From contig JBBPSI010000097.1 in the NCBI GenBank assembly GCA_038093515.1, positions 1 to 64,000 of the forward strand: a stretch of 64,000 bases of DNA, given 5' to 3'. The notes under the pieces are model-generated. The model saw only the letters and a list, made by a program, of their open reading frames with translations. It did no database searches and was not told the origin of the DNA. The first letter of the stretch is position 1. Every line of letters begins with the position of its first letter. Position numbers and translations under genes: made by a program. This document shows, piece by piece, positions 3,832 through 9,265 of the stretch. The DNA is from Butyriboletus loyo. Its lineage: Eukaryota; Basidiomycota; Agaricomycetes; Boletales; Boletaceae.

Positions 3832-4185
3832 TCAATTGTAATAAGCTGTCAAAGCGCGATAGGTAGTTTCGGCAGCGATTTCCATAGCGGTTCCCCTGTC
3901 GCGGGCTACACCTCTCCCGTATTCAACGCCATTAACTGTCGACCATCATCCATCAGTGTCTAGGTAAGAGAGTACCGATGGGCATGACTTACAATACGCA
4001 ACTGCTAACCATCGTGTGTCGTGTGATGGGCCAGACTGTGTGTACGACCAGGAAAGATGTCGTGTATGACCATATCGGCCTTGGAGATAGTTGTTCAGGT
4101 ACATTCGCCAGTCACTTGTTTGGCCTGGAACACCGTCAGTAATATTCGACTACAGAAACGGAGCCAGCAAGTACTTACGCTCCAT
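3832..4185 (-). CDS. Small single-domain dsRBD-fold protein (copy A)
   Basis: This is a three-exon gene for an 80-residue protein that is almost nothing but one dsRBD fold. The exons are 4185-4179, 4124-3993 and 3935-3832, with 54-nt and 57-nt GT-AG introns, both in phase 1. Reading order: helix 1 YLNNYLQGR, strand 1 HLSW, the SGP turn, strand 2 RWLAVAY, then FNGVEYGRG and helix 2 with AMEIAAETTYRAL. The order and spacing match PF00035-type dsRBDs. The lysine-rich KKxAK motif that contacts RNA is not present; the helix starts ARDRGTAME. A TATAAAT box sits at 4239-4245, about 55 bp upstream of the ATG. No signal peptide or membrane span is present. Function is unknown; RNA binding is plausible but unproven. 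Confidence 0.72.
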
Positions 4186-4238
4186 ATTTCTGAGGAAAGA
4201 TAACAGTCACTGTGATCGATTGGAAGAGATATAGTACA

Positions 4239-4245
4239 ATTTATA
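4239..4245 (-). promoter_or_regulatory. TATA box of dsRBD copy A
   Basis: TATAAAT on the minus strand, about 55 bp before the ATG at 4185. Confidence 0.5.
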
Positions 4246-4622
4246 TCTAAACCCGTTGAAGAGAACGGCACCGCCCATGGACTGAGGATCCACAGGAAGT
4301 CATTTCGAGTCAAAGAGATGACGAGAAACTAGAGGGACCGCCCCGGCGAGAGTTGGGCTCAACTACCGCAGCTGTGTGCAAAACATAAACGTCAACGGTA
4401 CCCATATTTGGAGAATAGAGGTCCCTGCATTGTGATGAATTATAGCTGTAGCGGGATCTTTGAAATTGACATCGGTGTTATAATCAATCGCAACTTCAAG
4501 CAGGTGGAGGAAACGCCATACTTTACCTGCCGATGTGACTCGTCTAGCCACAAGCTGTGTGTGAGAATAACATCGCCGAAAGTTAGCAACCTCCGGAGGA
4601 TACGTGATCCTCGTGACGTTTG

Positions 4623-5914: not shown

Positions 5915-7092
5915 ACGGTGAATGTAGACGTTCACCCGGTTGGTCGAGTTGCACCGTTGGCCGAGGCTGAGGGACAAAATATTTTTCGCTTGCATGGATG
6001 CCTATGGTGAAACGTTAAAGGCGTCCATGTCCGGATCCACATCCTGTGCGGGTTGGCAAATAAGTACCAGAACTATAATCAGGATGAAGATACACAAAAA
6101 ATTGCTAGAAACGAAGTACCAAGTCCCCAGCCAACCCGTCGATTCCGTTAAAATTTAAACAAGCACGACCGTGACTGAATGCACCCTTACGTTCTACTGG
6201 CAGACTTTCATTACGTAATCGTATATACTTTATAGTTTCAGTCTCAGGGCTACCGGCAACGTTTGGAATCGCCTCAGTCACCCAGTACTTGGCATAGCTG
6301 CGCCGCTGGTTACTTTTTCAGGTTCTCTGAAATACTGCCATTTCGTGCCACCACGCTCTTCAGACCCCGTTCTGGATGTTCAACGCGCATTCCACATGTT
6401 CGCGCAATCATCGACCACTTGACCAGACTACACAGCGAGGGCAGCTCATGCCCACTTAGATTACAAACCTCATGACTCTCAAACGACACCGCCTCGTCTC
6501 CAGATGCACCAGATCCCGGATCAATTATTTGTACCTGCTTACTATGATATCCCAGTGGCCTACGCCTTGGAGGAGCAAATAAATGCCTAGGAACGTTTTT
6601 GCAAGCATGTAGCTTCTCCGTCCACCCCCTTCCGTCTCAGCCGATCTAGATGAATGCGTACCTGGAAGAGAATCTCTAGCCAACAGATGGTACTTTCCAA
6701 GTTATGGGCAATTGCTGGAGCGCCGCCCGGTGTTTCCACGTCCTTCTCCTGGACCCTATTTTTGACAGTGCTTGGAGCGATCCAATGCAGATACCCGACA
6801 TGAAGTCCTCGTGGTCACTTTCTTTCTCTCGCTTCTTCGCACCAAGCAGTTCGATCGATATTGCGTGTAAAGAGCGCGCCTTATTTCATGCAGCTTGGCT
6901 ATTTCGTGTATTGTTCCCCAAGCTTGATGGCAACGCCGCGATCATGGAGAGCGCACACCCACAGAAGCATTCAGTTCCGCCTAGCATTGCCTTTGAACAA
7001 TACCGCCATCGTTAATACTTTCTCGATGTCTCCGCCGCTAGACAGTATAAAAATTACTGTTTGACTATGGGAGCCTGCCAGGCAAATACAGA
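5915..7092. other. Gene-poor stretch containing one dsRBD relic
   Basis: No intact gene was resolved. On the minus strand, about 6550-6274, a long open frame ends in KSVVARNGSISENLKK, an in-frame TAA (6310-6312), then PAAQLCQVLGD and a stop. The tail closely resembles AAQSACQVLG of copy D, so this is probably a dsRBD copy with a nonsense change. A plus-strand frame ending at 6590 and another at 6704-7015 have no recognisable motif. A TATAAAAA box at 7046-7053 belongs to the next gene. Confidence 0.45.
7046..7053 (+). promoter_or_regulatory. TATA box of dsRBD copy C
   Basis: TATAAAAA on the plus strand, 40 bp before the ATG at 7093. Confidence 0.55.
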
Positions 7093-7493
7093 ATGTCCCC
7101 TAGTACGCGTTCCCCCAGACTTCCAGATGTGTTCTTTCGTGCTCATCGTTTTAGCTCAAGACCCCATCGTTGCGCTGAATAATTGTATGCCAAGCAGGCT
7201 CCGGCTAAGTGATGCACTCTAATAAACCATCCAGACCTACAGTCCATAGGACGGGCCGCTGCTCTCAGCTGGAAGGACTCGACGAGCGGGCTAACACACA
7301 GTCCGGAATGGAAGTCTATATGCAAAAGTGAGCATTCTTCTTCGGTGTCGTGTACATTGTCTGATAAATTCATGCAGTTTCTGGGAAGGAATATGGTGCG
7401 GGTGTTGGGACCCATAAGCACCTTGCACGTGGTGCAGCGGCGGTACTCGCTCTAGAGGTGCTCAAACTCGAGGTGGAGAGCGAGCGCGAATGA
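7093..7493 (+). CDS. Small single-domain dsRBD-fold protein (copy C)
   Basis: This is a four-exon gene encoding 82 residues. Exons are 7093-7102, 7155-7184, 7235-7327 and 7378-7493, all joined in phase 1 across 50-52-nt introns. The domain reads VALNNYLQSIGR (helix 1), ALSWKDSTSG (strand 1), SPEWKSICK (strand 2), SGKEYGAGVGTHKH (strand 3 and turn), then ARGAAAVLALEVL (helix 2) and an acidic tail. HKH-LAR at the start of helix 2 is the most basic of the set. Intron 2 splits the Tyr codon of NNY-LQ, the same place as in copy D; intron 3 lies after strand 2 in all copies. The TATAAAAA box is 40 bp upstream of the ATG. Role unknown. Confidence 0.74.
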
Positions 7494-8753
7494 TATGTTA
7501 GACTGATTCTCAGTATCGCCATCGGACAGCGACTGGACTAACCCAAGTTTTCCGCGTTCTTTGTCTATTTATTTTTCTCTCGTCCTTTCCTGCCACATCT
7601 GGTTTCCACAATCCCCTGTTACCCTGCGTCCCACTCTGTAACTTGACACCTAGCTCACGTCGTGGGGGGTTGTTATCTATTCACGCGTCATTGCATTATT
7701 CAGACGAAGGGACCGATATTAGCCTGTGAATCAACATAGGCTGAATGGCGTGATATGAACTACATGCATATCTGAATCCGACGCGGCTGCCAGCCTTGAA
7801 CTTGATAAGAGTGACTAGCGACTAGCGACTAGCGAAGGGCGCTGCCAAATTCGTCGCAGGTATTTTTTAGTGCAGTTTTGCTATATCGTCGTGGTGACTT
7901 CTCAATTCACCGGCACCACAGTCCTCCTTGATCCCCCTCGATCACCCTTCCGGATGTTCTCTGACGCTGAATATGACTCAGATGATAGATAACCGGAAGA
8001 ATCCAAGCGGTCACCATTGGCATGGTCGCCGGAACGAAATCTCCGCTTCATCCCTCCACTTTTCGGCTTGCGTATCTACAGATCAACGGCAACCGCGACC
8101 TGACCAGCACAGCTGCCAAGTTCTTTTTTCAGGTTACTGCGCGCGTTTTTCTTGTGTAATGTGACTTGTTACGGCCGCAGTGATGGGATCCTCCTGCAAT
8201 AGTCGATGTATTCGGAGATCAACCCCAACATCAGACATGGTGCCAGAGCAATATCCCCACGAAAGGATACACAAAGCTATCCCTCTGATCTTCGTTTTTC
8301 CACTCAACTCCACTTCTTTTGACGCCTAGTCTAAACGGCGCGATAAAACTCTTTTGTCTGCGTGCATGTCATCCGCTGTTGACGGAACACCTAACACGTT
8401 CCATCGACTCTCCTGGAGGTCTGTATTGACGATATCTATGTCGGATCGGTCACTATTCTTCGTGGCGATGACTCCGTCAACAGATGCCACTCATAGTTCC
8501 GAAGTTAGCTGATGACTTGTCAGCCCGGATGTGCCTGCCGAATAACTCGTTAGTAAGTGCTAAGCGTCCGTTGGCAAGCCCCGGTTTTCAAACCAGGTTC
8601 AAATATGTTATCGATCAACGAGAACTAACGCCCTTATCCCGCTACGCACTGGCAGGCAGTGGCAGCTTCTCCAACGGTTCCTGATTCAGGGACTCGGAGT
8701 GGCTTCTCGGCAACACCTCATCAACCGGGGTTACAGCACCGAATGGTGCAACC
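7494..8753. other. Gene-poor stretch
   Basis: No gene is supported. It holds a tandem triplication of the heptamer GACTAGC near 7812-7833. A short minus-strand frame (8712-8634) ends GEAATACQCVAG and resembles the terminal helix of the neighbouring dsRBD genes; it may be a relic. A 20-codon ATG frame at 8237 has no motif. Confidence 0.45.
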
Positions 8754-9265
8754 ATGTCTGCATTCTCCGATAAAAAGAATGTACCAGGGACGGTATGTGA
8801 AGGACACCCAAGCCCCATACATCATCATTATCATAAGTTTACTTCTCAACCTTAGTATTTCCTGCGCAACATGGCTAATGGAAGTGAGTCAAATGTCATC
8901 TTTGATTGCTGGAACAGAAACTCATAAATTATAGGATATGTCACGGCTCTCCATAATTGTGAGTTGATTGCTCGTCGTGTGTATGTGTGTATTCAACCTC
9001 ATTGTACTGTAGACCTCCAGGGACGTTATGAAGAACACTTACTGAGTTGGAAAGAATCTTCTGAAGGCCCTCCAAATGCCTTGACGTGGACTGCAGTGTG
9101 TAAAGGTATGCGATTGGGTGGAGGTCGAAATGGTGAAATGATTTTACGTTATGTTTTGTTTTAGTTAGGGGTCAGGTGCTCGGAAGTGGCACCGCTGGTC
9201 AGATTCGCATTGCCAGGGAACAGGCGGCACAGTCCGCGTGTCAGGTGTTGGGGATTTCAGCGTAA
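8754..9265 (+). CDS. Small single-domain dsRBD-fold protein (copy D)
   Basis: This is a five-exon gene for about 94 residues. Exons are 8754-8792, 8856-8883, 8935-8958, 9013-9105 and 9165-9265, joined in phases 0, 1, 1 and 1. After a short N-terminal part the domain reads VTALHNYLQGRYEEH (helix 1), LLSWKESSEGPP (strand 1 and turn), LTWTAVCK (strand 2), RGQVLGSGTAGQ (strand 3), then ARREQ-like helix 2 IAREQAAQSACQVLG and stop. All introns have good donors (GTATGT, GTGAGT, GTGAGT, GTATGC). The reading frame stays open upstream of the ATG, so one more 5' exon is possible. The protein has no signal peptide. It is the longest of the four clear copies and the only one with a phase-0 intron. Confidence 0.73.

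What the first reader, a model, noticed from the sequence alone, without database searches (positions are those of the whole stretch)
3832..9265. Hidden cluster of tiny intron-rich dsRBD-only genes
Seen: four multi-exon genes (3832-4185 -, 5215-5574 -, 7093-7493 +, 8754-9265 +) each splice to 80-94 residues with the same column order: NYLQ helix, LSW strand, GP or SG turn, W strand, G-x-G turn, AA-rich helix. Exons are 7-132 nt, so ORF-based annotation misses them and the stretch looks empty. Established: this order is that of the dsRNA-binding fold (PF00035). Inference: a locally duplicated family, possibly acting on RNA silencing, on mobile RNA or against RNA viruses, or as dominant adaptors of Dicer-like or ADAR-like proteins.
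Basis: partly seen in the sequence, partly recalled or inferred. Interest (0 to 1): 0.86.

Follow-up and report, generated by a model that had tools for sequence, protein, structure and literature searches.

The report
Cluster of four one-domain dsRNA-binding genes
A mushroom-forming fungus carries four neighbouring, very short genes that each make little more than one double-stranded-RNA-binding domain; they are real members of a widespread but seemingly unstudied family, and one line has lost residues that usually grip RNA, which hints at a regulator rather than a plain binder.

Summary
The four genes re-splice to 76-83 aa with ten GT-AG introns of 50-59 nt, all phase 1, and 4 of 4 pass Pfam's dsrm (PF00035) cut-off. 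A profile made only from other species' proteins finds their eight main exons, all above the best of 30 shuffled windows, and no fifth copy. AlphaFold models of the g1 and g3 orthologues are alpha-beta-beta-beta-alpha; g2 and g4 were not folded.

The interpretation needs changing. The genes are not a recent duplication, and relatives in other fungi are already annotated ("hypothetical", "DRBM domain-containing"). g1 and g3 each have orthologues in several Boletales (68-85% identical), g2 one clear one (73%), g4 only a distant relative (54%). In 6 of 6 Boletales genomes with two members, both sit on contigs of identical length.

New: in the KKxAK contact motif the g3 line has KHxAR, while the g1 line has fixed R/K-G-x-A-M in 6 of 6. 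The genome has Dicer, Argonaute and RdRP genes. Best guess: trans-acting dsRBD subunits of RNA silencing. Identity is near certain; mechanism is inference. Ten searches of one open library listed no paper on the family.

The parts
3832..4185 (-). g1, 80-aa dsRBD protein; exons 4179-4185, 3993-4124, 3832-3935
   Evidence: Spliced; PF00035 25.6 bits (cut-off 23); 69-85% identical to 5 Boletales proteins
5215..5574 (-). g2, 83-aa dsRBD protein; exons 5559-5574, 5377-5502, 5215-5324
   Evidence: Spliced; PF00035 25.0 bits; 73% identical to Boletus edulis P0006
7093..7493 (+). g3, 82-aa dsRBD protein; exons 7093-7102, 7155-7184, 7235-7327, 7378-7493
   Evidence: Spliced; PF00035 33.1 bits; 68-82% identical to 8 Boletales proteins
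8871..9265 (+). g4, 76-aa dsRBD protein; exons 8871-8883, 8935-8958, 9013-9105, 9165-9265
   Evidence: Spliced; PF00035 35.4 bits; best relative Rhizopogon P0062 at 54%; a protein search with g4 alone found nothing
8754..8792 (+).
   Evidence: Open with GT-AG edges in the sequence; not supported or refuted by anything else

Best explanation
Four real, old, free-standing dsRBD genes of a boletalean fungus; each protein is one dsRBD and almost nothing else. Inferred mechanism: they are trans-acting dsRBD subunits in RNA silencing. g3 and g4, which keep most basic contact residues (KHxAR, IRxAR), bind dsRNA and either help Dicer to take it or shield it from Dicer. g1 and perhaps g2, whose third contact residue is methionine (RGxAM), act mainly by pairing with another dsRBD and so tune that binding, much as DRB7.2 and DRB7.1 work with DRB4 in Arabidopsis. 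Shown: genes, family, predicted fold of two lines, conservation, motif shift, presence of silencing genes. Inferred: RNA binding, pairing, the link to silencing. The identity as dsRBD genes I hold at about 0.97, the mechanism alone at about 0.35.
For: Pfam dsrm over cut-off in 4 of 4; shuffles and outside-species profile; fold of the g1 and g3 orthologues, nearest solved structures all dsRBDs, among them PKR, RNase III, HYL1, TRBP, Loquacious, ADAR1 and, for the g1 orthologue, DRB7.2. Third contact residue basic in 29 of 29 rows outside the four groups and in 8 of 9 of the g3 line, but M in 6 of 6 of the g1 line, whose GPxH loop is kept in 6 of 6. RNase III pairs on C33 and C24, Piwi matches on five contigs, RdRP matches on three. 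None of the 8 dsrm places lies at C33 or C24; the C24 Dicer's end matches dsrm only at 15.4 bits, under the cut-off.
Against: No binding, pairing or expression data. No silencing gene was recognised near the cluster among the 20 of 40 long window frames scanned. The second contact lysine is rare in the whole family (K in 1 of 29, K or R in 5 of 29), so even g3-like members may bind weakly. The proteins are only mildly basic or neutral (pI 6.3-9.6 in the four groups). The C24 Dicer may well have a working divergent dsRBD of its own.
Confidence: 0.42

Rival explanations
1. General RNA housekeeping: the proteins bind structured cellular RNA (rRNA, mRNA hairpins) and help folding, stability or localisation, without a role in silencing.
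For: Wide spread in Agaricomycetes in one short form; the fold also matches dsRBDs of mitoribosomal and helicase proteins; the annotated neighbours are housekeeping genes.
Against: The loss of the third contact in the g1 line (6 of 6) is not expected of a plain RNA binder; several members per genome suggest specialisation.
Confidence: 0.3
2. Protein-pairing modules only: none of the four binds RNA; they are dsRBD-shaped adaptors that dimerise with dsRBDs of larger proteins, such as the helicase or the proline-rich dsRBD proteins of the same genome.
For: KKxAK is not intact in any of the four; larger dsRBD proteins exist in the genome, and one dsRBD (C1:799790) has an intron at the same place and phase.
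Against: The third contact residue is K or R in 29 of 29 other rows, in 8 of 9 of the g3 line and in g4, which suggests that RNA contact is kept there.
Confidence: 0.2
3. Decaying copies or pseudogenes of a dsRBD gene.
For: Small size; g4 lacks a close relative (54% at best; no hit).
Against: Open frames, intact splice sites and 68-85% protein identity of g1, g2 and g3 to proteins of similar length in other species.
Confidence: 0.03

Closest known systems
PF00035 dsrm domain family
   Same: 4 of 4 proteins score over the curated cut-off; predicted fold and nearest solved structures are dsRBDs
   Different: The domain is the whole protein, and KKxAK is altered in all four
Small DRBM domain-containing proteins of Agaricomycetes (e.g. 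P0002 Boletus edulis, P0036 Hypsizygus, P0032 Fomitopsis)
   Same: Same family by sequence, same size class; direct orthologues of g1, g2 and g3 in Boletales
   Different: Annotated only by name or domain; no study found in my ten searches
Arabidopsis DRB7.2/DRB7.1 with DRB4
   Same: Works-like model: a small dsRBD protein that pairs with another and sequesters dsRNA from a Dicer (PMC8138440, passage); 8igd and 8z49 are among the VIA-align rows for the g1 orthologue
   Different: Plant proteins with further sequence; orthology not tested; pairing here is untested
TRBP/PACT, HYL1, DRB4, Loquacious (Dicer partner proteins)
   Same: dsRBD fold; a dsRBD can serve Dicer contact rather than RNA contact, as TRBP's third does (PMC8138440, passages)
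   Different: Those carry two or three dsRBDs; here one

Membership tests
PF00035 dsrm | Profile score over the curated cut-off | tested here: met
   25.6, 25.0, 33.1, 35.4 bits against 23
PF00035 dsrm | alpha-beta-beta-beta-alpha fold | tested here: met
   For orthologues only: P0002 (85% to g1) pLDDT 84.0, P0004 (81% to g3) pLDDT 91.4; g2 and g4 not folded
RNA-binding dsRBD of the canonical type | GPxH loop between strands 1 and 2 (motif recalled) | tested here: inconclusive
   g1 GPSH; g2 GPDN, g3 GLTH, g4 GPPN
RNA-binding dsRBD of the canonical type | KKxAK at the start of helix 2 (motif recalled) | tested here: not met
   g1 and g2 R-G-x-A-M, g3 K-H-x-A-R, g4 I-R-x-A-R; g3 and g4 keep two of three basic residues
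RNA-binding dsRBD of the canonical type | Binds dsRNA | not testable with these tools
   Needs a binding assay
TRBP/HYL1/DRB4-type Dicer partner | Two or more dsRBDs in one protein | tested here: not met
   One dsrm stretch in each of the four proteins
DRB7.2-like regulator | Pairs with another dsRBD protein and keeps dsRNA from Dicer | not testable with these tools

The most novel reading that the evidence does not exclude
Boletales keep an old, linked set of one-domain dsRBD subunits that combine in trans: RNA-binding members (g3, g4) and a member whose RNA contact was given up and the loss then fixed (g1, R/K-G-x-A-M) pair with each other and with Dicers whose own dsRBD is divergent, so that the ratio of subunits sets whether dsRNA is diced or shielded. 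That would be a split, combinatorial dsRBD module for RNA silencing in fungi.
Probability: 0.12. Interest if true: 0.72.

Novelty: new variant of a known kind. Interest (0 to 1): 0.43.

Why it matters
dsRBD partner proteins help to decide which dsRNA a Dicer takes in animals and plants (PMC8138440, passages). A survey of 1,592 fungal proteomes reports that in most fungal Dicers no dsRBD is detected (the largest class, without PAZ and dsRBD, is 62.7%), with the warning that divergent ones may be present (PMC12663654, passages). A conserved family of free-standing dsRBDs in mushroom-forming fungi is a small, easily expressed candidate for such a partner, and the g1/g3 contrast is a ready-made natural test of RNA contact against pairing.

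Tried and rejected
Chance reading: rejected. Recent tandem duplication: rejected, since the four are 36-46% identical to one another but g1, g2 and g3 are 68-85% identical to orthologues elsewhere. A fifth copy in the window: none above the shuffles (the next frame, 33977-34042 -, scores 13.0 against a shuffle maximum of 13.1). Other dsRBD places in the genome (8, two of them exons of g3 and g4, a lower bound by the tool's own words): a DEAD/DEAH helicase at C1:200448, a 177-aa frame with KKAAR at C93:5260, C-terminal dsRBDs after proline-rich stretches at C1:799790 and C1:515935 and a short gene at C35:161812 (my reading), and C21:96118 beside an RNase III match, which looks to me like mitoribosomal mL44. 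Four more NNYLQ-type DNA matches (C64, C117, C214, C222): no dsRBD follows in the three frames I read, and the reversed control pattern gives 11 matches against 6. Rfam: nothing at gathering level in the window. Repeats: nothing longer than 25 nt in the first 14 kb. Protein search with g4 alone: no candidate.

Results against my reading or limiting it: the tree has 68 columns for 49 rows and 11 of 46 well-supported inner branches; C1_799790 and P0021 are long branches; g4 with Rhizopogon has 93/75 and g2 with P0006 93/68, below the star level; Hydnomerulius P0019 (57% to g2) falls at the base of g1+g2, not inside g2. Contig sharing is read from equal 'longest contig' lengths, not from contigs, which I could not fetch. 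Outside Boletales the two genomes with two hits each (Mycena galopus P0038/P0048, Peniophora P0052/P0075) have them on contigs of different length. Orders of named fungi are recalled, not looked up.

Literature: ten searches listed no paper on this family; the library holds open-licence PMC papers only. I saw passages of PMC12663654 and PMC8138440; other papers only as search listings.
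Full report
What was checked. The four proposed genes were rebuilt with GT-AG introns. They give open proteins of 80, 83, 82 and 76 residues, with ten introns of 50-59 nt, all in phase 1. Nine of ten introns have a CTNAY branch-point-like site, against 413 of 2,518 (16%) GT..AG stretches of that length in the window. Pfam's dsrm model scores 25.6, 25.0, 33.1 and 35.4 bits against a cut-off of 23.

Chance. A profile made from 30 proteins of other species was run over all 2,004 stop-to-stop frames of at least 20 aa: 8 frames score 20.2 bits or more, all of them exons of the four genes; the next scores 13.0. 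The best of 30 dinucleotide shuffles is 13.1. A profile of 18 proteins from outside Boletales ranks the same 8 frames on top (39.3 to 12.9 bits), but with a shuffle maximum of 14.2 the last exon of g2 (12.9) does not stand out by itself. The spliced proteins score 103, 82, 55 and 50 bits (g3, g4, g1, g2) with that outside profile.

Family. A search with the four proteins found 26 proteins; the 17 with an organism name are all from Boletales (order recalled). A second search with a 17-row alignment found 94 among 3,616 candidates, with proteins mostly of about 75-100 residues from, among others, Mycena, Hypsizygus, Lyophyllum, Ganoderma, Fomitopsis, Lactarius, Russula and Heterobasidion: free-standing dsRBDs spread through Agaricomycetes. 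They are annotated, as hypothetical or DRBM domain-containing proteins, so the family is not hidden as such.

Lines within the family. In a tree of 49 rows (few columns, weak deep forks) g1 groups with five Boletales proteins (99/97), g3 with eight (93/88), g2 with one Boletus edulis protein (93/68) and g4 with a Rhizopogon protein (93/75). g1 is 69-85% and g3 68-82% identical to these, g2 73%, g4 54%, while the four window genes are 36-46% identical to one another. The split of the g1 and g3 lines is therefore older than these genera. Six Boletales genomes have two members among the hits: g1 with g3 in Boletus edulis BED1, B. coccyginus, Gyrodon lividus and Phlebopus sp.; g2 with g3 in another B. 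edulis; a g1/g2-like protein with g3 in Hydnomerulius pinastri. In 6 of 6 the two lie on contigs of identical length, and in Phlebopus they bear consecutive model numbers (F5I97DRAFT_1928050 and 1928051). That the cluster is conserved is an inference from this. Two genomes outside Boletales with two hits each have them on contigs of different length.

Shared introns. All four genes have a phase-1 intron at the end of strand 2, and g3 and g4 share another inside the tyrosine codon of NNYLQ (strands). A dsRBD elsewhere in the genome (C1:799790) has an intron at the first of these places in the same phase (my reading), which points to a common origin.

Fold. AlphaFold2 models of the g1 orthologue P0002 (pLDDT 84.0) and the g3 orthologue P0004 (91.4) show helix-strand-strand-strand-helix. 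Foldseek puts them among dsRBDs of PKR, RNase III, ILF3, HYL1, DRB2, ADAR1, TRBP and Loquacious; VIA-align, run for the g1 orthologue only, adds DRB7.2. g2 and g4 were not folded.

RNA contact. At the three basic positions of KKxAK (motif recalled) the 29 rows outside the four groups have K or R in 25, 5 and 29 of 29. The g3 line has K/R, H and R in 9, 9 and 8 of 9. The g1 line has K/R, G and M in 6, 6 and 6 of 6. g2 has R, G, M, but its two nearest relatives have R or K at the third place. g4 has I, R, R. So the second contact is altered in nearly the whole family, and the g1 line has fixed the loss of the third. Since its GPxH loop is kept in 6 of 6 rows and the proteins stay 69-85% identical, this looks like a constrained change, not decay.

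Setting. The genome (30.3 Mb, 420 contigs) has RNase III pairs on C33 and C24 and further matches on C15, C21 and C1, Piwi matches on five contigs, RdRP matches on three and one deaminase-domain place. None of the 8 dsrm places lies at C33, C24 or C15; the end of the C24 Dicer matches dsrm weakly (15.4 bits, cut-off 23), so a divergent dsRBD is likely there. The fungal Dicer survey reports the same pattern (PMC12663654, passages). Of the 40 window frames of 150 aa or more, 20 were scanned; those with a match near the cluster are housekeeping (UCH, Rsm22, Cpn60/TCP1, LTV, M1 peptidase/TAF2-like).

Mechanism. Shown: genes, family, fold of two lines, conservation, motif shift, presence of silencing genes. 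Inferred: that g3/g4 bind dsRNA, that g1/g2 act mainly by pairing, and that the pathway is RNA silencing. The nearest working model is DRB7.2/DRB7.1 with DRB4 in Arabidopsis, which sequesters dsRNA precursors processed by DCL3 (PMC8138440, passage); TRBP and PACT show that a dsRBD can serve contact with Dicer rather than RNA (same paper, passage). Neither is evidence about these fungal proteins.

Verdict. It is a real, old and seemingly unstudied family, a new variant of a known domain rather than a new kind of system. It earns moderate interest, mainly for the g1/g3 contrast and the possibility of dsRBDs supplied in trans to fungal Dicers.

Noticed in passing
G000 C24:45676-46734 and C33:90985-91927 (L054, L053): Two Dicer-like genes with paired RNase III matches; the C24 one ends in a stretch that matches dsrm only at 15.4 bits, under the cut-off, so its dsRBD seems divergent.
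   Followed up: partly
G000 C93:5260-5439 (L004 1171-1704): A 177-aa open frame with a C-terminal dsRBD that keeps KKAAR, unlike the four window genes.
   Followed up: partly
window 39460-40227 and 44697-45665, - strand: Two frames with a helix-loop-helix DNA-binding domain about 4.5 kb apart, perhaps a duplicated transcription factor.
   Followed up: no
window 54053-55117, + strand: A single 354-aa frame with seven WD40 repeats.
   Followed up: no
G000 C326:12529-13686 and C33:17656-18613: Piwi matches with several stop codons in the matched frames; either introns read through or decayed Argonaute copies.
   Followed up: no
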